From contig JBDKVB010000050.1 of the NCBI GenBank assembly GCA_039679385.1, positions 62,001 through 126,000 of the forward strand: a stretch of DNA of 64,000 nucleotides. The letters are read 5' to 3'. Position 1 is the stretch's first letter. Each line of letters opens with the position of its first letter. The DNA comes from Armatimonadia bacterium. GTDB lineage: Bacteria > Armatimonadota > Zipacnadia > Zipacnadales > JABUFB01. The translations under genes were made by a program, and so were the position numbers. Shown piece by piece: positions 1,267 to 60,337 of this stretch. The notes under the pieces are model-generated. The model was not told where the DNA came from and ran no database searches. It was given only the letters and a program-made list of their open reading frames with translations.

Positions 1267-2913
1267 TCAAGGCGTCTGACTGCCGCGAAGCCGGAAGACG
1301 TAGATCAGCGGCACCCCGTCCACGCCGTCGGTGTAGACCGGCTGCTGTGTCGCAATCAGGTTGCGGGTGAGGTCGCTGAGCTCCGTCGGTTTGTTTTGGG
1401 TCACAGCAAAATCGGAGCTTGCAGAGCCCTGCGGCCCCGACGAGAAGTGCAGATCCGGTCGCAGTGGCCCCAGCTCAAAGAGCCGGAAGGCACTCTCATA
1501 CCCCATCGGCTCAACCCAGACCGTGGCGCCCTGAGGCGCGTTGCCCGCCAGCCACAGGGCCGCGCTGCGGTAGCTGTCGCCCCAGTAGGTCGGCTCCATC
1601 CCCAGTCGCGTGGCTCCCGGCAATCCTCCGACAAGGGCATTATAGTATGACAAGTGGAAGGGTGTGAACCTCCCCGTTGCCGCCAGGGGGCCGATCAGAG
1701 CCAGAAACAGCGCCAGGGCCACCACTTTGGGGCGCTGTTCGGCCTGACCAAAGCGCGCCACCAAGGGCCGCAACAGACTGCTGAATCCTACCGCGGCAAG
1801 CGTCGCCATAAACGGAAAAATCGGCAGGAACAGCCGCACACCGTTGTACTTGGGCGAAGTGGGCAGGCAACTGGGCACGAGGTTGACCACCAGGCTCCAG
1901 GCCGCGAGGACCAGGAAGGACCGGTGCATAGGCTCCAGCCGGCGCACTCTGAACAGCACCGCCAGACCAACCAGCGCCAGCAGCAAGGTGACCGGCGGCG
2001 TGGTGATGGTGGTCATCACCAGCGGGTAGTGCCAGGGCGCGACTTGGTACACCTTCCCGAAGTAGGTCACCGCGATCTCCCAGTGCCGGAAGTGGAACTG
2101 GAAGTACTCGGAGAAGCGTGTCGCTGTGTCATGCCACAGCCAGGGCCAGGTCCCCAGGAACACCAGAGGGCCCAGGACCGCATAGGAGGCGGCCAGCTTT
2201 GCGAGGTGCCGCCGAGCGTACACCAGCGCCCAGGGAAAGACTGCGAAGGGGACAAAGAAGGCGTTCAGCTTCGTCCCAAGGGCCAGTCCCCACAGCAATC
2301 CGGCCAGCAGCGACCAGCGCCAGGCAGGGCTCAGACGTCGCCTGGGAGCCTGCTCCTTTCCCACTGTCGTTCCTGAAGTTCCGGCGTAGGCCGCACGCCA
2401 GGTGGCTGCGATCGTCAGCAGGCACATCGCCATGATCGGCGCGTCCAGCGCGGCCAGATGGCAGGCAGCGAAGACATGGGGCATCAGCAGGAGAGCGCCG
2501 ACTGCATAGAGACCGGCCGCACGTCCCCACAACGGCGCCACGAACAGGTACAAGGCCGCCAGACACAGGGCTGCCAGCAGATTCGTGCCGGTGCGCAGGG
2601 CCTCGCTGGACCCGGTCAGACTGGCGACCGTCACCCCGGAGATACCCGTTACGAGCTTGTAGAAGCCCGGGTGCATGTCCGTGGCCTGCCAGTAACGGTC
2701 AACCCCCTCGGCACTGATCGCGTAGCCGGGATCGACCGATAGGGCCTTAAGCCACTCGACGGCCTGCATCGACTTCGACTGGTAGATCGGCTCGTCGTAG
2801 GTGATGCCGTACAGCGAGTTCGTGGCGGCCAGAAGCAGGAAGGAGATCACACCGATCAGCGCGGCAATCCAGCCGTGATGAAGCCTCCGCGACGGCGCTG
2901 CAGTGTCGCTCAC
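1267..2913 (-). CDS. GT39/ArnT-like integral membrane glycosyltransferase
   Basis: About 548 residues with roughly 10-12 hydrophobic segments. The first loop after TM1 carries ITYDEPIYQS, matching the acidic DE motif of GT-C enzymes such as protein mannosyltransferases and ArnT, which take sugar from a polyprenyl-phosphate donor on the outer face of the membrane. HPGFYKL and a long C-terminal extracytoplasmic part (TYWGDSYRSAALWLAGNAP and on) also fit the family. The chosen GTG at 2913 overlaps the TGA of the upstream YfhO gene as GTGA, with an AGGGGG stretch about 10 bases ahead; a second GTG lies at 2922. Translational coupling with the neighbours is likely. Donor and acceptor are unknown. 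Confidence 0.85.
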   Translation of the reverse strand: MSDTAAPSRRLHHGWIAALIGVISFLLLAATNSLYGITYDEPIYQSKSMQAVEWLKALSVDPGYAISAEGVDRYWQATDMHPGFYKLVTGISGVTVASLTGSSEALRTGTNLLAALCLAALYLFVAPLWGRAAGLYAVGALLLMPHVFAACHLAALDAPIMAMCLLTIAATWRAAYAGTSGTTVGKEQAPRRRLSPAWRWSLLAGLLWGLALGTKLNAFFVPFAVFPWALVYARRHLAKLAASYAVLGPLVFLGTWPWLWHDTATRFSEYFQFHFRHWEIAVTYFGKVYQVAPWHYPLVMTTITTPPVTLLLALVGLAVLFRVRRLEPMHRSFLVLAAWSLVVNLVPSCLPTSPKYNGVRLFLPIFPFMATLAAVGFSSLLRPLVARFGQAEQRPKVVALALFLALIGPLAATGRFTPFHLSYYNALVGGLPGATRLGMEPTYWGDSYRSAALWLAGNAPQGATVWVEPMGYESAFRLFELGPLRPDLHFSSGPQGSASSDFAVTQNKPTELSDLTRNLIATQQPVYTDGVDGVPLIYVFRLRGSQTP

Positions 2914-5303
2914 TGCCTGCACCCCCTGTTCGTCCCGGAAGCGACCGCCACTCCCACCAAGACCGCCGCCGCCAGCAGCGTAAGGAACCCGCCAACCCAG
3001 AAGGTCGCGGGCACGTACACAAATCGCACCGGCGAGGAGTCGGATCTCGTCTGCACGGCCCTCAGGACGCCGTCAGCCCTCTGCACCGGCAGCTCCTGAG
3101 CTCCCTGGAAGGCATGCCAGCCGGGATAGTACGCATCCGCCAGCACCATCACCTGTCCCGGTCGGAAGCTGGAGCCCAGGCTCAGCGCCTCGGGATACTG
3201 CTCCTCGACGATGACCGACCCGGTGGGTGGAGCTACCCTCGAGAAGGGAGCTGCACTGGACACCACAGCGGCCTCCCGCGGGCGGAAATCAGGCGAACAG
3301 ACCCGTTCCGAGACCGCCTCCGGGGCGACGGTCTCCTGCTTCGACACCGCAAAGGCCCGGGGGAGTACCTCCGTGTTCTCGTACAGGTACCCCTCGTCAT
3401 CAGACAGCAGCCTCAGCCCTGTCACGCCCTCCAGCGGCACGCCGGAGTACACGAACCGCGCACCCAGCAGGTCGACCACGGGACTGCCGGGATCGGGCTG
3501 CGCGAATCCATAGCACTCGCTGGAGATCGCGGTCAGAAGCCGCCGATAGGCACCGATCTCGAGCGATTCCGAGCCCTGCACATCGCGCAGGCCGACGATC
3601 ATCGCCGTGTTGGGCGACATCCTGCGCAGAGCATCGCGACCGAGAGTGAGGATACGGGAGCCCGGCTCGGCGGCCTTCATGCGCTCGATCACCGGCGACC
3701 GTATGGAGAGGTAGGCCGGGTTGACCGAGGGCGTGAAACGGTCCACGAACAGCCCCAGGTCGAGCACCAGGCCGACCAGCACGACCGTCGTGCCCAGCTT
3801 CGGACTGCGCACGGCGATCAGCGAGCCGACCACTGCCGCCGATAGGAACCCCACGAACCGCAGCACCTGGTGCGTGGTGTACTGACCCAGGCCCGGTAGC
3901 TGCACCTCGAGGCCGCCCGTGTACATCCATGCCCAGCCGCCGGCGACAAGCCCCAGCAGGCCGACCTCCAGCGCGGAACGGCTGAGCGCTCGCACGGCAG
4001 CACCGGGGTCCTTCGCGGACGTGTCAAGCAGCGCGCTGAGTCCCATCGCCCCCAGGACGGAGATCGCCACCGACACCAGCAGCACCGCGCGGCTGATTCC
4101 AGCCAGCGAGCGGTACCCGGGGACCAGGAAGTACAAGGGTGCGTTCAGGTGCGTCCCGGTGGCCAGCAGCACTCCCACGACAGCGAGGCAGACCCAGAAG
4201 AGGGCCTCGCGACGGCTCCTGAGGAAGCCTATCGGAGCCAGGAGAAGCGGCGCGACCCCGACGTAGAAAGCGCCCTCCATGTAGGCCTTATACCCGCGAC
4301 CCAGATAGTCGCCCCAGTCATTGGTATCTACTGGACTGCCCAGCAGATTCGGTGAGAAGACCGTCAGCAGTCGCGCTAAAGGCAGACCGTTGGCCAGCAA
4401 GTCCGCGTAGCTCATACCGGCAGCACGTGAGGATACCCTCGTCAGCTCCAGCACAGGCAGCAACTGGGCCGCCGCCAGCAGTCCTCCCGCAAGTACCGCA
4501 GCAAAGGCCGCTACCGCCGCCTGGACCGCAAAGCGCCGCTCACCCTCGCGGTACAGCACTACGCAGCGGAAGAGCAGGTACGCCGCCACGGTGATCAGCA
4601 CGTACAGGGAGATGTGGAGCTGTCCCGCCAAGAACTGCAGCCCCACCAGGAGCGCGCAGAGAGCCAGCAAACTTGGTCGACGGGACCGCAGGAAGGTCTC
4701 GCAGGCAGCCAGGATGCCCGGAATCCACAGGGGTACTGAACGACAAGGCGGCACCGTCAGCCACCCGACCACGAAGCCGTTGAACATGAAAGCTATGGCG
4801 CCCAGGAGGCAGGCGATCCAGCGCAGCCCCAGAACCCGCAGGAACCAGTACATCAGACTGCCGCCGGTGAAGAAGGCCAGCGAACTCGCCCAGCCCAGGG
4901 CCCTCTGTGTCGGCATCAGGGCGTGCAGCCAGGTCTCCGGGTAGAGGACCGCGGAGAGGTTGTTGGCCAGGAAGGGCGTGCCGCACAGCTCGTAAGGGTT
5001 CCACAGCGGGAACTGCCCCTGCCGCAATCGCTCCCCGGCATACTGGCGCCACGGGTAGTACTGCTGCAGAGAGTCTAGCACCGGATTGTGCACCCGCTGG
5101 AACTCGGGGAACTCCGCAGCATGGTGCCTCCCGGGCTCCATGAGCAGCAGCAGATCGCCGGGCACCAGCGCCTTGCCGGTGAGGTTCGCACGCCACAGCA
5201 CCCCGACTGCAAGGGCAGCCAGGATCGCCAGGGCGGCGAGGTCGGCCCATCGCTCACGGCGCCGGGAGCCGGGCAGGTTGTCGCTGAGTGTAGCAGCCTT
5301 CAT
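2910..5303 (-). CDS. YfhO-family integral membrane protein
   Basis: About 797 residues with many transmembrane helices. The N-terminal region has the arrangement of YfhO proteins: GDLLLLMEPGRHH, LDSLQQYYPWRQY, then GQFPLWNPYELCGTPFLANN. Bacillus YfhO proteins are GT-C-fold enzymes or helpers in glycosylation of lipoteichoic acid or other cell-surface polymers. The C-terminal quarter is a non-membrane domain followed by a last TM (FWVGGFLTLLAAAVLVGVAV). The frame is open back to 5345, but the ATG at 5303 lies 7 bases after the upstream stop and removes a 35-base overlap, so it is preferred. There is no strong SD sequence, which suggests coupled translation. Confidence 0.88.
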   Translation of the reverse strand: MKAATLSDNLPGSRRRERWADLAALAILAALAVGVLWRANLTGKALVPGDLLLLMEPGRHHAAEFPEFQRVHNPVLDSLQQYYPWRQYAGERLRQGQFPLWNPYELCGTPFLANNLSAVLYPETWLHALMPTQRALGWASSLAFFTGGSLMYWFLRVLGLRWIACLLGAIAFMFNGFVVGWLTVPPCRSVPLWIPGILAACETFLRSRRPSLLALCALLVGLQFLAGQLHISLYVLITVAAYLLFRCVVLYREGERRFAVQAAVAAFAAVLAGGLLAAAQLLPVLELTRVSSRAAGMSYADLLANGLPLARLLTVFSPNLLGSPVDTNDWGDYLGRGYKAYMEGAFYVGVAPLLLAPIGFLRSRREALFWVCLAVVGVLLATGTHLNAPLYFLVPGYRSLAGISRAVLLVSVAISVLGAMGLSALLDTSAKDPGAAVRALSRSALEVGLLGLVAGGWAWMYTGGLEVQLPGLGQYTTHQVLRFVGFLSAAVVGSLIAVRSPKLGTTVVLVGLVLDLGLFVDRFTPSVNPAYLSIRSPVIERMKAAEPGSRILTLGRDALRRMSPNTAMIVGLRDVQGSESLEIGAYRRLLTAISSECYGFAQPDPGSPVVDLLGARFVYSGVPLEGVTGLRLLSDDEGYLYENTEVLPRAFAVSKQETVAPEAVSERVCSPDFRPREAAVVSSAAPFSRVAPPTGSVIVEEQYPEALSLGSSFRPGQVMVLADAYYPGWHAFQGAQELPVQRADGVLRAVQTRSDSSPVRFVYVPATFWVGGFLTLLAAAVLVGVAVASGTNRGCRQ

Positions 5304-54206: not shown

Positions 54207-55316
54207 CTAGGGTTCGACCACGTAGATGTCGATCGACCCGAGCGGTTGACTCATCTCTTCGTCGGCCCACAGTGGATGGGGCAAGGCACTCGGGGCGACG
54301 AAATCCTCCACTGAGAGCACGAAGGCTATTGCCTCGCCGGCTCCCCGATGACGATCGAGGGCGATGGCCAACTCATACAGGGCCGCGCCGTCAATCCCTG
54401 CATACTGCAAGAGCAGAGCGCCGTCGGAGCCCAGGCCTCGAAGCCTGACCTCTAGCTCCATGCTGGACTGCATGTAGCGCTGCTCAGGCTGCACTATCAC
54501 TTCGAGGTCTGGATAGGAAGCCCGCAGGGAGGCCAGGATCGTCTCGCGCTCCGCATCGCCGAGACCGATGAAGACCTTGGGCTCGACGAACTCGAGCCCA
54601 AGTTCGAGCTCAATCTGAACAGTTCGCACCGCCTGCTCCGAGGTCACAACATCGGCGCTGCTCAGGACGAAGTCGTCGAAGGAGAGCGTCTTGCGCAGCT
54701 CGCGGAGAACGTTCGGATCGCCGGCACAGAAGAAGTTGGCGCACTTTCCGGGCTTCCAACGTCCGGCCAGACAGCCGCGAGAGAGGTCATGAAAGAGACA
54801 GCGCGGCGGAGCAAGCCGTCGGCCGCGGAACTTGAAGCTCGAACCGGGCTTGGCGAGGGTGCTCAGTGCTGCATGTCCTCCGGGAGTGCCCGCGAGCGCC
54901 CGCAGAGCCAGGGCCCGGATTCCGGCGAAGCGCAGCATCCGCTGCAAGGTCTCCGTGGTTGGCTGCCAGGGCCCCTCGATGAGTTCGCAGAACTCCTCCC
55001 AGTCGGCCATGATCACGGCGAGTTGCCGGCGGCCCTCCGGTGTGCTGGAAGGGGAGGCCTCCATGAGCCTGGCGATGGTCTGCAGGGTGGCCAGGTCTGC
55101 ACGCAACTCGCGAGCACGCTCCTGCAGGCCTTCACGAAGGGTCGCTTCGCGCCCCGGCTCGATCACCATCCCCTTCACCAGGCGGCGGAGGTCGTGGGTA
55201 CCCATCATCGTGCCCTGGTGGCAGCAGCTATTGCCGCAACTGCCGCAGACTTCCTGTACCACAACCTGTGCGGCTGCGATGGCCTCTCGTGTTCGCCCGG
55301 CAAGCGCGTCTGTCAT
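54207..55316 (-). CDS. YkgJ-like cysteine-rich protein (CxxCxxxCC) with a unique C-terminal part
   Basis: 369 residues; TGAGGC ahead of ATG. CGSCGNSCC at about 24-32 and CLFHDLSRGCLAG...KPGKCANFFC at about 172-197 match the YkgJ pattern of a Zn- or Fe-S-binding domain (C-x2-C-x3-CC then C, C, C-x4-C). The last ~170 residues (VQIELELGLEFVEPKVFIGLGD and on) are not found in plain YkgJ proteins; they resemble no family I recognise. Possibly metal-dependent chemistry or Fe-S assembly. It is 9 bases after the enolase-like gene and probably in one operon. Confidence 0.75.
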   Translation of the reverse strand: MTDALAGRTREAIAAAQVVVQEVCGSCGNSCCHQGTMMGTHDLRRLVKGMVIEPGREATLREGLQERARELRADLATLQTIARLMEASPSSTPEGRRQLAVIMADWEEFCELIEGPWQPTTETLQRMLRFAGIRALALRALAGTPGGHAALSTLAKPGSSFKFRGRRLAPPRCLFHDLSRGCLAGRWKPGKCANFFCAGDPNVLRELRKTLSFDDFVLSSADVVTSEQAVRTVQIELELGLEFVEPKVFIGLGDAERETILASLRASYPDLEVIVQPEQRYMQSSMELEVRLRGLGSDGALLLQYAGIDGAALYELAIALDRHRGAGEAIAFVLSVEDFVAPSALPHPLWADEEMSQPLGSIDIYVVEP

Positions 55317-55325
55317 GGGTTTGCC

Positions 55326-56405
55326 TCAGGAGGAGAAGGAGACCAGGGGCTCGGTCCGGGCGGTCCAGCCCGCCGGATAGCCAAGGCCGGGAAGGTCGGA
55401 GGCGAGGACGAAGCCGTCCTTGAGGGCCTCAGCCATGCTCAGACCCATCTCGGCCAGCGCCGCATCCGACACCCACAGAGGGGACAGATGTGACCGCGAG
55501 ATGGAGACGCAGGCGCTGACGAGGGCCGTCATCGCCGACACACAGGGGGCGAGGGCCATCCGCACGCCATAGAGGCCGACGAGATCGGCCAGCTTGAGCG
55601 CGCCCGTGATTCCGCCGCAATAGCTGAGAGTCGGTATGAGGAGGTCGCAGCAGCCCGCGTCGAGAGCGCGGCGGAAGCGTTGCATGCCAAGGGTGTCTTG
55701 ACCGGCAGCGGTCGGCGCCGCAATGCCCTTGCGCACCTGTGCCAGCTCCTTCCACTGGCCATCCCTCAGGAGCCCGGAGACCCAGAAGGGGTCTGCGCGG
55801 TCGAGAGACTGGCCTACTTCGATAGCGGCTTCCGTGCTGGCCGGTGAAGGGGTGACGCGGGCGATGAGCATGACCTCAGTGCTCAGCAGACGACGGGCAC
55901 GGCGGAAGCGATCGATCTCCGTTGAGATGGTTGGGTCGACCGAGAAGGAGACCATCCGCACGCCTGTGGCGAGCGCGGCTTTTGCGCTCTGGATCGCGGT
56001 CTCCTCGGTGCAGTCACCGCAGTCGACGCAGATCTCGGTCCGCGGGCGAGTGCGGCCACCCATCAAGGTGGTCGTGGGGACGCCCAACTCCTGGCCGGCG
56101 AGGTCCCAGAGGGCGATGTCGAAGGCGCTCAACAGGGAAGCGGCAGCATCCGGGGAGTCATCCCAGTCGGAGGCAGCGCCGGCGACGGCGTGCCAGATCG
56201 CCTCTCGGTCATGGGAGGAGCGTCCAAGCACCAGCGGCGCAAGAGCCTCGACCGCCTCCATGAGCTCCGGAGTCTGGGCGAAGGCCAGTTCGGCATAGCC
56301 CGAAAGACCCGTATCCGAACGCACTCCGAGCTGGTAGCCGGGGCACTCGTCCCGCTGGGTCTGTCGCTTGCTCAGCGTTACTTCGACGACGCGCGATGCA
56401 ATCAT
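55326..56405 (-). CDS. Enolase-superfamily (MR/MLE-like) protein lacking the usual active-site residues
   Basis: 359 residues. The capping domain (VRSDTGLSGYAELAFAQTPELMEA), AFDIALWDLAGQELGVPTTTLMGG and GGITGALKLADLVGLYGVRMALAPC are typical of mandelate racemase/muconate lactonising enzymes. However, the metal ligands are replaced: IARV (about 181-184) for the DAN ligand, WVSGL (208-212) for W-x-E-x-P, and GQD (235-237) for GE. The general-base KxK is VSFSV (about 152-156). It probably does not catalyse the usual Mg2+-dependent proton abstraction, so a pseudoenzyme or new chemistry is possible. Its operon partner downstream is the YkgJ-like gene. Confidence 0.8.
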   Translation of the reverse strand: MIASRVVEVTLSKRQTQRDECPGYQLGVRSDTGLSGYAELAFAQTPELMEAVEALAPLVLGRSSHDREAIWHAVAGAASDWDDSPDAAASLLSAFDIALWDLAGQELGVPTTTLMGGRTRPRTEICVDCGDCTEETAIQSAKAALATGVRMVSFSVDPTISTEIDRFRRARRLLSTEVMLIARVTPSPASTEAAIEVGQSLDRADPFWVSGLLRDGQWKELAQVRKGIAAPTAAGQDTLGMQRFRRALDAGCCDLLIPTLSYCGGITGALKLADLVGLYGVRMALAPCVSAMTALVSACVSISRSHLSPLWVSDAALAEMGLSMAEALKDGFVLASDLPGLGYPAGWTARTEPLVSFSS

Positions 56406-56504: not shown

Positions 56505-57203
56505 CTATCGAGGCCGGTTCTGAACCTCCATGAAATCGAGCACATCAGAGAGGTGGAAGCGCCGCTGATTCCCGGGCGTGCGGTAGCAGCGGAGCACCCC
56601 ACGGTCTGTATAGCGGCGGATGGTGGTCCGGCATACCCCCAGGAGAACCGCGACCTCCTCCAGGGTGAGGGTCGGATCAAGGAGTCGCTGAACAAGAGCC
56701 TCACGGGTCTCGCGCGGACTGCCTTCGACCCCTTCGGACACCGCGTGACGTGCCTCGATATCCAGGGGCAACTGCGCCTGCCGTGCCAGGACGGACTCCA
56801 GGCGCTGACGCAGACTGATGATGGGAACCTCGATGCGGTCGGCGACCTCCCTCGGGTCGGGAGTATTCGTCGCGGCGACGGTCGAGTCGTGAGGCGTGGT
56901 CGGCTCGGCGAGCAGTGCCGGCTCCGCAGCTTCGTCCGCAGCCGGCTCCTCGTCGACCTCGGGAGCAGGGGCAGGCTCTTCGGACTGTTCCTGCTCCGGA
57001 GCGGCAACCTCCTGCGCTTCGGGGGTCGCGAGGGTTGCCTCGGAGGAGTCCACGCGCTGCTCCTCGGGCACTTCCTCCAAGGCCGTATCGGCCTCAGTCA
57101 TCATCGGCAACTGGGCATCTTCGGCCTCCGCCGCGGTATCGGTATCCCGTGGCGCATGGCGGATACGGCGGTCACGTTGTCGCATCCATTCATGGTTAAG
57201 CAT
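56505..57203 (-). CDS. HTH (MerR/excisionase-like) DNA-binding protein with acidic disordered N-terminus
   Basis: 232 residues. About 25-110 is a low-complexity Glu/Ala/Pro-rich, probably disordered segment. The C-terminus LTLEEVAVLLGVCRTTIRRYTDRGVLRCYRTPGNQRRFHLSDVLDFME is a winged HTH of the MerR/excisionase class, with the RTPGNQRRF wing. No effector domain or dimerisation coiled coil typical of full MerR is present. It precedes the enolase-like gene on the same strand, a possible regulator of it. The SD is weak; ATG 57185 is an alternative. Confidence 0.78.
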   Translation of the reverse strand: MLNHEWMRQRDRRIRHAPRDTDTAAEAEDAQLPMMTEADTALEEVPEEQRVDSSEATLATPEAQEVAAPEQEQSEEPAPAPEVDEEPAADEAAEPALLAEPTTPHDSTVAATNTPDPREVADRIEVPIISLRQRLESVLARQAQLPLDIEARHAVSEGVEGSPRETREALVQRLLDPTLTLEEVAVLLGVCRTTIRRYTDRGVLRCYRTPGNQRRFHLSDVLDFMEVQNRPR

Positions 57204-57551: not shown

Positions 57552-58682
57552 TCAGCGGGCTGCTCGCTGGAGCACTTTGCGTGCCCCCAGGGCGTCTACA
57601 CGCCGGTCCGTCGCAGCCTGGGCGAGCGCCGCATCTCCCGTGTCAAGATAGGCAAGGGCATCGGTCAGCGCCTCGCACACCAGGCTCACGTAGAGGGTCC
57701 TGCTTGCATGAAGGCTCTTAGCGTTGTCGGGCGGCGTGACACGGTCCAGGAACTTGGCAATCTCTTTGGCCTCGGCCTGGGCTCGGGTCACCTGTGCATA
57801 CACTTCGACACGTTCGTGGGCCGTCGGCTTGTGCTGATAGTAGTCGTCGAAGGCGGTCCAGGCCGGGTCGAAGAGCGTCCAGGTTGCATTGTCGGCGGCG
57901 AGCCCGATCGAGGGATACAGGTCGGTCCTGTCCTTCAGTGTCTCCGGCGACACGGCACGGAAGTACGCGAAGGCGGTCATGTAGTCGCCGAGCTCGAGGC
58001 TCAGGCTCGCGACCTTGAGCTGGGTCTGGCTCAGCAGCGGCTCCTGGGCAACCCGTGCCGCATGCCGGTAGTCGTCTACCGCGTGCTTCCTGTCGCCCAT
58101 CCGCTGGTACTGGGCACCGAGGGCCGCAAGCACCTGTGGAGCCTCGGGAGCGACCTTCCGGGCGTCCTCAAGAATGTCGAGAGCGCTGCGGTCACGTTCC
58201 TGAGAGCTCAGGATGCGAGCTAGCTGTAGGTATGCGCCAGGCGCTTTGGGGTCGCACTTGATGGCACTGCGGTAGAGGTCTGTAGCGTCAAGCCAGAGCC
58301 CGCGGTTCTCCATGATCCCGGCAAGCCGCAGGTAGGCCTCAGTCAGCGTGGGGTCACGGTAGATCGCCCCGCGCAGTTCCGTCTCCTCAGCCGCCGGGTC
58401 CTGCCTGGCGCTGAAGACCTTGGCGCGCATCAACTGGTACTGGCCGAGAGGCAGGCCCTTGCCCTTCGCGTTGTCCAGCACCAGGAGGGCACGGTCGTAG
58501 TCGCCCTGCTGGAGGGCCGCGTACATCAGACCTTCGGTCTCGGGCAAGAGGTCGGGTGAAGGCACAGCAGGAGTCGTCGCTGTTGTGTCTCCGGGTGCCG
58601 GGAGTTCACCCGGCCCGGCAGCGGCGATCGTGACCGTCAGGAGCCCGCAGAGCCCGAGGAGGGCGAGTAGCTTACTGGTCAT
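57552..58682 (-). CDS. Secreted TPR protein
   Basis: 376 residues. Signal peptide MTSKLLALLGLCGLLTVTIAAA. Then TPR units from about 50 on (YAALQQGDYDRALLVLDNAKG, YLQLARILSSQERDRSALDILEDA, AALGAQYQRMGDRKHAVDDYRHAARV). Exported scaffold, partner unknown. ATG 58682 overlaps the TAA of the zinc-ribbon/TPR gene upstream (TAATG), so the two are translationally coupled and likely work together. Confidence 0.85.
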   Translation of the reverse strand: MTSKLLALLGLCGLLTVTIAAAGPGELPAPGDTTATTPAVPSPDLLPETEGLMYAALQQGDYDRALLVLDNAKGKGLPLGQYQLMRAKVFSARQDPAAEETELRGAIYRDPTLTEAYLRLAGIMENRGLWLDATDLYRSAIKCDPKAPGAYLQLARILSSQERDRSALDILEDARKVAPEAPQVLAALGAQYQRMGDRKHAVDDYRHAARVAQEPLLSQTQLKVASLSLELGDYMTAFAYFRAVSPETLKDRTDLYPSIGLAADNATWTLFDPAWTAFDDYYQHKPTAHERVEVYAQVTRAQAEAKEIAKFLDRVTPPDNAKSLHASRTLYVSLVCEALTDALAYLDTGDAALAQAATDRRVDALGARKVLQRAAR

Positions 58683-60217
58683 TAGTTGCTGTCCAGAGCG
58701 TCCAGAGCACGGCGGCAGCTTTCCACTGCGCTGCGATTGGCGCCGGCCCGCGAGGGATTGCTGCCCGATTCCTGCTGATAACCGCGAAGAGCTGCCGAGT
58801 ACAGCGAGCGGGCCTCAGACCTGTTGCCCTGGGCCCAAGCGGCGTTTGCCCGGGAGCGCAGATCAGAGGCGCCCGCGGAATTGCTGTGGTTCGACCCGCC
58901 GGAGGTGTAGCCGGAGGAACTGCGTCCGCTGTTGGGTGTGGCGGAAGAGGCACGCGCCTGCGCTACCCGCGTCGACGTGGAGCCCGAGACAGCAGAAGTG
59001 CGTCCACCGGGGGAGGTCACAGGCCGCGGGAAGCTGCTCTTGGTGGCCGAGCCGGACGACCGCGAGGAGCGAGAGTTCGTTGCAGCGGGAGCGCTGCCGA
59101 CGCTTCTGCGCTGCGTGGCAGTTGCGGCACTTGACCCGGACTGCACGGCACGCGGCGCACCCGTGAGAGGTGAAGCGCTGTAGCCCCCGCCATTTGAGTA
59201 GAGGCGGTTCGTGTAGGAGCTTGACCCGGCCGGTACTCCACTCGACGGCGCGACGGAGTTGGACGTCGCAGCCCTGCCGGAACCCTCATCGCCCATCCAG
59301 ATGCGCACCTTCCCGCGAGGGGATTCCATTGCAGGCGCCGGAGCCGGGTTCGTGGTCGCAGGATGGGAGGCGGTCGGTGGTGCGGCGGCTGAGGGCACTG
59401 GCGTGAGAGGACCGTTGCCGTTGCTCTTGATCACCGTCGGAGGGGGCATCGGAACGTCGTTGAGCGGCCCTACCGGAGGTGGGGTGTTGCTGCTGCGCGG
59501 CGAAGGCATCCCCGAGGACGCATTCGGTTGGTTCGCGCTCTGGTCCAGCGGCGCACTCCCGATGGGCTTGCCGGTGAGCAGGCCCATGTCCATAGTGGCC
59601 TCTCCAGCAGGCGTCTCCTGAGCGACAGCTTTGCCTGCTGTGTTTGCGGGGGCACCGGATTCGGGCAGGAAGGGTGAGCCACCGGCAGTGGTCGGCGCCG
59701 TGTTGCCGGGAGCCTGGCTGCGGCCGGTCATTGCCAGGCCAAGAAGGAGGACTAGCACGACAGCGGCGGCCGCTACCGCGATCGGCAGCCAGCGCTTCCG
59801 CGGCGGCATGAGTTCGGAATCGAGCAACTCCGGCTCGGCCTCAGCGGCCAGAAGTGCGCGGACGCGGTCGGCACGTTCACGTTCGGCCGTACGCTCAGGG
59901 GCCAGTCGCAGGACTGCCTCGTACTCGGCCAGGGCCGCAGCCGTATTGCCCCGCTCCTCTTCGACCATCCCGAGGAGGGAGCGGGCGGCCACGAGACCAG
60001 GGTCGGCGTCGAGTGCTGCCCGGCAGGCGGCCGCAGCGTCGTCAAGCTTACCGGTGGCGAAGAGCTCTGAGGCCTCGTCGAGCAGGCGCTCGCCACTGGG
60101 CCGGATGGGCTCGGGCGCAACGGGAGCCGGTCGTGCGACCGTGAATCGGGCCCCACAGCGGGTACAGAAGGCGCTGCCCGCGGAGCTGCGCGCACCGCAT
60201 TGTGGACATTCAATCAT
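58682..60217 (-). CDS. Zinc-ribbon/TPR/single-TM protein with long Ser/Pro-rich extension
   Basis: 511 residues from ATG 60217 (GGAGG 8 bases upstream). MIECPQCGARSSAGSAFCTRCGARF is a classic zinc ribbon (C-x2-C...C-x2-C). TPR units follow (ELFATGKLDDAAAACRAALDAD, EERGNTAAALAEYEAVLRLAP), one TM (WLPIAVAAAAVVLVLLLGLAMTG) near 145, then over 250 Ser/Pro/Thr/Gly-rich residues likely outside the cytoplasm, and a final TPR-like helical part (RANAAWAQGNRSEARSLYSAALRGY). It resembles the TPR-TM protein at 22932-24146. Promoter at 60309-60337. Confidence 0.83.
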   Translation of the reverse strand: MIECPQCGARSSAGSAFCTRCGARFTVARPAPVAPEPIRPSGERLLDEASELFATGKLDDAAAACRAALDADPGLVAARSLLGMVEEERGNTAAALAEYEAVLRLAPERTAERERADRVRALLAAEAEPELLDSELMPPRKRWLPIAVAAAAVVLVLLLGLAMTGRSQAPGNTAPTTAGGSPFLPESGAPANTAGKAVAQETPAGEATMDMGLLTGKPIGSAPLDQSANQPNASSGMPSPRSSNTPPPVGPLNDVPMPPPTVIKSNGNGPLTPVPSAAAPPTASHPATTNPAPAPAMESPRGKVRIWMGDEGSGRAATSNSVAPSSGVPAGSSSYTNRLYSNGGGYSASPLTGAPRAVQSGSSAATATQRRSVGSAPAATNSRSSRSSGSATKSSFPRPVTSPGGRTSAVSGSTSTRVAQARASSATPNSGRSSSGYTSGGSNHSNSAGASDLRSRANAAWAQGNRSEARSLYSAALRGYQQESGSNPSRAGANRSAVESCRRALDALDSN

Positions 60218-60308: not shown

Positions 60309-60337
60309 AGTATACACGGGGCCCGGAATAGCGTCAA
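60309..60337 (-). promoter_or_regulatory. Promoter of the zinc-ribbon/TPR operon
   Basis: On the minus strand TTGACG (60337-60332), 17-base spacer, TATACT (60314-60309); start near 60302, 85 bases before the ATG at 60217. Confidence 0.7.

What the first reader, a model, noticed from the sequence alone, without database searches (positions are those of the whole stretch)
55326..56405. Enolase-superfamily protein without metal ligands
All expected metal-binding and general-base positions (Asp, Glu, Glu, KxK) are replaced by Val, Ser, Gln and Phe/Ser, while barrel and capping segments stay conserved. Loss of all at once suggests a pseudoenzyme or a repurposed scaffold. It lies in an operon with a YkgJ-like cysteine-rich protein and downstream of an HTH gene.
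Basis: partly seen in the sequence, partly recalled or inferred. Interest (0 to 1): 0.6.

Follow-up and report, generated by a model that had tools for sequence, protein, structure and literature searches.

The report
Operon-bound enolase-fold pseudoenzyme, repeatedly inactivated
A sugar-acid-enzyme-like gene in this bacterium has lost every residue needed for catalysis, yet in its relatives the same gene stays in the same operon under selection after losing its active site at least four or five separate times, so the protein probably now has a structural or regulatory job rather than an enzymatic one.

Summary
ORF 55326-56405(-) is a full-length mandelate-racemase-type enolase-superfamily protein that keeps none of nine catalytic positions (KxK, three metal ligands, the metal-loop Asn, the Asp/His dyad, the final Glu). 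It is not an isolated oddity. Genomes of the same order carry the syntenic orthologue in a conserved cluster: TPR - BldC/MerR-like HTH - OmpR-type regulator - enolase-fold protein - eight-cysteine protein. Twelve orthologues have an intact active site; twenty (window included) have lost part or nearly all of it. Trees imply at least four independent losses, five if the partner gene's tree is followed. After loss the gene evolves about twice as fast relative to its partner, but its frame stays open, dN/dS is mostly 0.13-0.45, structural motifs persist, a 30-residue active-site loop shrinks, and the main decayed clade has its own conserved residues. The operon's regulator is also a degenerate pseudo-receiver in every copy; the window's family has lost that gene. 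Best reading: a retained pseudoenzyme, probably a structural or ligand-sensing partner of the adjacent cysteine-rich protein; that partner role is inferred, not shown. "YkgJ-like" was not confirmed by profile search, and the decay was stepwise, not all at once.

The parts
55326..56405 (-). Enolase-fold pseudoenzyme (MR/MLE N- and C-terminal domains), 359 aa
   Evidence: Pfam MR_MLE_C/MR_MLE_N; 0 of 9 catalytic positions kept; family orthologues L007 44% and L008 41% also decayed
55941..55949 (-). KxK (general base) site, now S153-F154-S155
   Evidence: alignment to mandelate racemase K164/K166
55857..55859 (-). first metal-ligand Asp position, now R183
   Evidence: alignment to D195
55776..55778 (-). 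second metal-ligand Glu position, now S210
   Evidence: alignment to E221
55698..55700 (-). third metal-ligand Glu position, now Q236
   Evidence: alignment to E247
55629..55631 (-). Asp of the His-Asp dyad, now T259
   Evidence: alignment to D270
55548..55550 (-). His of the His-Asp dyad, now A286 (no His nearby)
   Evidence: alignment to H297
54207..55316 (-). Eight-cysteine protein of unknown family (CxxCx3CC ... C ... C ... C ... C), 369 aa; directly downstream wherever the enolase gene is present and the contig extends far enough
   Evidence: eight Cys invariant in 22 orthologues; synteny; no Pfam, NCBIfam or PDB match; GAGG before its ATG overlaps the enolase stop codon
56505..57203 (-). 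BldC/MerR-type HTH regulator with long acidic N-terminal tail
   Evidence: HTH_17 E 9e-14, excisionase-type HTH; conserved in the cluster
57552..58682 (-). TPR protein with an N-terminal hydrophobic segment; cluster member
   Evidence: TPR Pfam hits; conserved upstream of the HTH gene
58682..60217 (-). Zinc-ribbon + TPR membrane-type protein, probable first gene of the transcription unit
   Evidence: Zn_ribbon and TPR Pfam hits; no terminator-like site between it and the enolase gene
60309..60337 (-). sigma-70-like promoter TTGACG-17-TATACT upstream of the unit
   Evidence: consensus scan only: 2 sites in the region, 0.2 expected

Best explanation
The gene encodes a catalytically dead enolase-superfamily barrel. 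Its ancestor was an acid-sugar cycloisomerase/dehydratase-like enzyme placed in a regulatory operon between a degenerate OmpR-type regulator and an eight-cysteine protein. Shown: syntenic orthology, graded and repeated loss, continued purifying selection, loss of the active-site loop, lineage-specific conserved residues.
For: 0 of 9 catalytic residues in the window protein. Same cluster order in genomes with intact and with dead versions. At least four losses by parsimony on the enolase tree, and a single clade of dead proteins rejected by AU test (p 4e-34). The partner gene's tree keeps family f3 together (98/95), which makes five losses, and the enolase data do not reject that (p 0.155). dN/dS (NG86) is 0.13-0.29 for close dead pairs, like the 0.18-0.25 of intact pairs. 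End branches relative to the partner gene: median 0.65 intact, 1.37 dead, p 3e-5. The 20s loop is 30 residues in all intact proteins with that region covered and 13-27 in the f1/f6 dead clade. P309 is 15/15 and a Gly replaces the invariant intact Trp in 14/15 of that clade. Partner cysteines are invariant throughout.
Against: No interaction, ligand or phenotype is shown. One family (f2, G003) has the cluster without the enolase gene, so the partner does not strictly need it. Rates roughly doubled after loss, which also fits partial relaxation. For the window protein itself dS to its nearest relative is near saturation (dN/dS 0.45). The model of the window protein is only moderately confident (mean pLDDT 56).
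Confidence: 0.5

Rival explanations
1. Slow decay: the enzyme became dispensable in these bacteria and the gene is drifting towards loss, held only by its place in an operon upstream of an important gene (translation must run through it).
For: Accelerated evolution after loss; different residues lost in different lineages; cluster without the gene in G003; stop codon overlaps the ribosome site of the next gene, so the frame could be kept for coupling.
Against: Open full-length frames in the dead orthologues that are not cut by a contig end, dN/dS 0.13-0.45, structural motifs kept more often than catalytic ones, and new conserved residues in the dead clade need selection on the protein.
Confidence: 0.22
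2. Ligand sensor: the barrel still binds an anionic sugar acid without metal and signals it to the neighbours; basic residues took over the metal's charge.
For: The metal-ligand Glu247 position is Lys/Arg in four separate groups (G010; G007/G008; G036/G037; the G029-G032 group) and the Asp195 position is Arg in the window protein, L007 and several f6 proteins. Intact relatives are nearest to acid-sugar cycloisomerases (5olc, 4ggb). The other neighbours with a recognised domain are regulators or TPR proteins.
Against: The replacements are not uniform (Q, A, S and G also occur), the lid loop is lost, and E-to-K is a common single-base change; binding is untested.
Confidence: 0.18
3. A new, metal-free enzyme built from other residues.
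For: f6 proteins keep the dyad Asp270 and mostly Glu221; the dead clade has some newly conserved positions.
Against: The window protein keeps none of these; the newly conserved positions are mostly Gly, Pro, Leu and Ala, not acid/base residues.
Confidence: 0.06
4. Intact but misaligned active site, or sequencing/assembly artefact.
For: Marked divergence (26% mean identity to intact orthologues) leaves some room for alignment error.
Against: No alternative D-E-E set near the strand ends; two other genomes of the same family also lack these sites; coding composition like its neighbours, GC3 0.80.
Confidence: 0.02

Closest known systems
Mandelate racemase subgroup of the enolase superfamily (acid-sugar cycloisomerases/dehydratases; PDB 5olc, 4ggb, 2mnr)
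   Same: Same two-domain fold by sequence and by Foldseek of the model; intact syntenic orthologues carry the complete KxK / D-E-E / D-H / E set and match 5olc at 4e-56
   Different: No metal ligands, no acid/base residues, shortened 20s lid loop
Pseudoenzymes in general (pseudokinases and others; PMC10415035 lists them for most superfamilies)
   Same: Fold kept, catalytic residues lost, gene under selection
   Different: Literature searches here found no described pseudoenzyme of the mandelate racemase type; and here the loss is repeated and graded inside one conserved operon
Pseudo-receiver / atypical response regulators (PMC12632262)
   Same: The cluster's OmpR-type regulator lacks key receiver residues, the paper's definition of a pseudo-receiver
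   Different: Sits next to an enolase-fold gene rather than a kinase; absent in the window's own family
YkgJ / CxxCxxCC family (PF03692), compared with the neighbour gene
   Same: CxxCx3CC followed by a second Cys group around a KP motif
   Different: No relevant Pfam or NCBIfam hit for any of 22 members; hhalign probability 2%; 369 aa with long extra regions

Membership tests
Enolase superfamily (MR_MLE), as fold/homology | N-terminal capping domain plus (beta/alpha)7beta-barrel sequence profile | tested here: met
   PF13378 and PF02746 above cut-offs; the Foldseek matches listed are enolase-superfamily structures
Enolase superfamily, as enzyme | Three acidic Mg2+ ligands at the ends of barrel strands 3-5 | tested here: not met
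   R183, S210, Q236
Mandelate racemase subgroup | KxK on strand 2 and His-Asp dyad on strands 6/7 | tested here: not met
   SFS, T259, A286 in the window protein; met in 12 syntenic orthologues
Pseudoenzyme | Homologous to enzymes, catalytic residues missing, gene under purifying selection | tested here: met
   selection is shown best for close pairs of dead orthologues, less well for the window gene itself
Pseudoenzyme | Absence of catalytic activity in vitro and a defined non-catalytic role | not testable with these tools
   needs biochemistry
YkgJ / CxxCxxCC (PF03692) for the neighbour 54207-55316 | Significant profile match | tested here: not met
   no PF03692 hit for 22 members, none in NCBIfam; hhalign prob 1.9%
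BldC family for the neighbour 56505-57203 | NCBIfam HTH_BldC cut-off 77 bits | tested here: not met
   36.1 bits; HTH_17 domain itself met
Pseudo-receiver response regulator (orthologous clusters) | Receiver domain lacking any of the five conserved residues | tested here: met
   acidic pair and Lys not kept in the cluster copies, phospho-Asp kept only in L063, L053, L045, L064; definition from PMC12632262

The most novel reading that the evidence does not exclude
An order-specific bacterial signalling unit built from dead modules: a pseudo-receiver regulator, a BldC-like HTH protein and a pseudo-enolase that lost its metal site several times in parallel (often swapping a metal-ligand acid for Lys/Arg) and became a metal-free ligand sensor or subunit controlling a previously undescribed eight-cysteine (Fe-S or Zn) protein.
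Probability: 0.22. Interest if true: 0.78.

Novelty: new variant of a known kind. Interest (0 to 1): 0.6.

Why it matters
The enolase superfamily is a textbook case of one conserved catalytic step diverging into many reactions. A syntenic orthologue series with stages from complete to wholly lost active site, reached several times independently, makes the enzyme-to-pseudoenzyme transition directly testable: when activity ends, what binding remains, and which partner keeps the fold. It also warns against annotating such genes as dehydratases or racemases, and brings to light an uncharacterised conserved eight-cysteine protein.

Tried and rejected
Shifted-ligand alignment: no alternative acids. 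One-off artefact or pseudogene: family orthologues show the same loss with open frames. Single ancestral loss: AU test rejects one clade. Grouping of the dead f3 proteins (G007/G008) with f1/f6 in the enolase tree may be a long-branch effect; the partner tree puts them with the intact f3. YkgJ membership of the neighbour: profile searches, PDB search and hhalign failed. Folding the neighbour from its sequence alone gave an unusable model (pLDDT 40). The genome-contig scan found only ordinary intact relatives at 23-25%. The search for an enolase-superfamily pseudoenzyme in the paper library returned nothing specific.

Full report
WHAT IS THERE. The ORF at 55326-56405 on the minus strand codes for 359 aa and carries both enolase-superfamily domains above Pfam's curated cut-offs. 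PDB relatives are mandelate-racemase-type proteins. A model made from the window protein and five distant relatives is only moderately confident (mean pLDDT 56), yet Foldseek returns enolase-superfamily structures throughout the 50 best matches listed. NCBIfam equivalogs match far below their cut-offs, so no known reaction can be assigned.

ACTIVE SITE. In mandelate racemase numbering the protein has K164S, K166S, D195R, N197T, E221S, E247Q, D270T, H297A and E317W: none of nine catalytic positions is kept. No displaced acids could rebuild the metal site; only D237 lies next to the lost Glu. Of 75 non-catalytic positions that never vary in intact orthologues it keeps 33 (Fisher p 0.008 against 0 of 9). 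The kept ones include the structural D96, W100, G116-G117, G235 and G265. The 20s capping loop, about 30 residues in every intact orthologue where that region is covered, is about 20 here.

ORTHOLOGUES AND OPERON. The host genus holds only this genome; in the order, 31 of 41 genomes have a match at E <= 1e-25. The regions around these matches show the same cluster: TPR protein, BldC/MerR-like HTH protein, usually an OmpR-type regulator, the enolase-fold protein, and an eight-cysteine protein directly downstream wherever the contig extends far enough. In family f3 genus g9 the HTH and TPR genes were not found next to it. In the window's family the OmpR-type gene is missing between HTH and enolase. 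In the window, the eight-cysteine gene starts 9 bp after the enolase stop, with a GAGG overlapping that stop, which suggests translational coupling (inference). No terminator-like site was found in the cluster, and one of only two promoter-like sites lies just upstream of the first gene (consensus match only). The eight-cysteine protein occurs in 36 of 291 genomes of the phylum, all in this class.

GRADED, REPEATED LOSS. Twelve syntenic orthologues carry all nine catalytic residues. Their nearest solved relatives are acid-sugar cycloisomerase-type enzymes (5olc, 4e-56; 4ggb, 1.5e-52; that 4ggb is a galactarolactone cycloisomerase is from my own knowledge). Others keep six (G020, G010), five (G021), four (G008), three (G007, G036), two, one or none. 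In a tree built without the nine columns, the minimum is four changes of state, and holding all decayed proteins together is rejected (p 4e-34). The partner-protein tree unites family f3 with good support (98/95), which separates G007/G008 from the f1+f6 clade and gives five losses; the enolase data do not reject f3 as a clade (p 0.155). So the loss was not 'all at once'. Within one genus (g15) both intact (G022, G023) and decayed (G020, G021) copies occur.

STILL UNDER SELECTION. Close pairs of decayed orthologues have dN/dS of 0.13-0.29 (NG86; up to 0.45 by YN00), against 0.18-0.25 for intact pairs. For the window protein and its nearest relative dS is 1.4, near saturation, and dN/dS 0.45, so the window gene itself is the weaker case. 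Relative to the downstream gene, end branches are longer after loss (median ratio 1.37 against 0.65, p 3e-5): constraint is reduced but present. This test treats end branches as independent and uses rounded partner-branch values. The f1+f6 clade also has conserved residues of its own, such as P309 (15 of 15) and a Gly in place of the invariant Trp next to the old catalytic His (14 of 15; the window protein has Cys there). The Glu247 position is Lys or Arg in four separate groups.

NEIGHBOURS. The eight cysteines (C24, C27, C31, C32, C173, C182, C192, C197) are invariant in 22 orthologues beside both intact and dead enolase-fold proteins. The pattern resembles the CxxCxxCC (YkgJ) domain, but PF03692 hits no member and NCBIfam gives nothing significant, no PDB chain matches, and hhalign against true PF03692 proteins of the same order gives 2% probability. 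The OmpR-type regulators of the clusters lack the acidic pair and the Lys, and most lack the phospho-Asp; by the definition in PMC12632262 they are pseudo-receivers. G003 (family f2) has TPR, HTH, regulator and eight-cysteine genes but no enolase gene between them, so the enolase-fold protein is an accessory member; whether it was gained after f2 split off or lost there is unresolved, because that part of the partner tree is open.

MECHANISM. The best-supported account is a non-catalytic barrel kept for a role with its operon partners, most likely as a structural or allosteric subunit for the eight-cysteine protein, perhaps still reading an anionic ligand. That it is dead as a superfamily enzyme is close to certain from sequence (about 0.95). 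That it is a retained, functional pseudoenzyme rather than a gene on its way out I put near 0.75. The specific partner role is inference (about 0.5 for the whole statement). The main rival is slow decay in an operon whose downstream gene needs translation through it.

NOVELTY. Pseudoenzymes are known in most superfamilies (PMC10415035), but four searches of the held library found none described for the mandelate racemase type; that library is incomplete. A syntenic series with repeated, graded loss inside one operon is a new variant of a known kind.

Noticed in passing
L063:6590-7339, L053:8343-9050, L045, L055, L043, L067 and others: The cluster's OmpR-type response regulator is a pseudo-receiver: acidic pair and Lys lost in the cluster copies, phospho-Asp kept in only four; the gene is absent in the window's own family.
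   Followed up: partly
window 54207-55316: Conserved eight-cysteine protein with no significant Pfam, NCBIfam or PDB match, restricted to one class of the phylum; a candidate new metal- or Fe-S-binding family.
   Followed up: partly
L099 (G003): The same cluster without the enolase-fold gene; regulator and eight-cysteine gene are adjacent.
   Followed up: yes
alignment column of mandelate racemase E247 in L023, L031, L024, L026, L027, L029, L028, L034, L032: A metal-ligand Glu is replaced by Lys/Arg in four separate groups, as if a basic side chain took over the metal's charge.
   Followed up: partly
L054 (G034), 2036-3030: The eight-cysteine gene is read in two overlapping frames, suggesting a frameshift or an assembly error in that genome.
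   Followed up: no
L002, L004, L005 (G000 contigs C89, C53, C143): The host genome also holds several other enolase-superfamily paralogues that keep the metal-ligand acids, so the loss is specific to the operon copy.
   Followed up: partly
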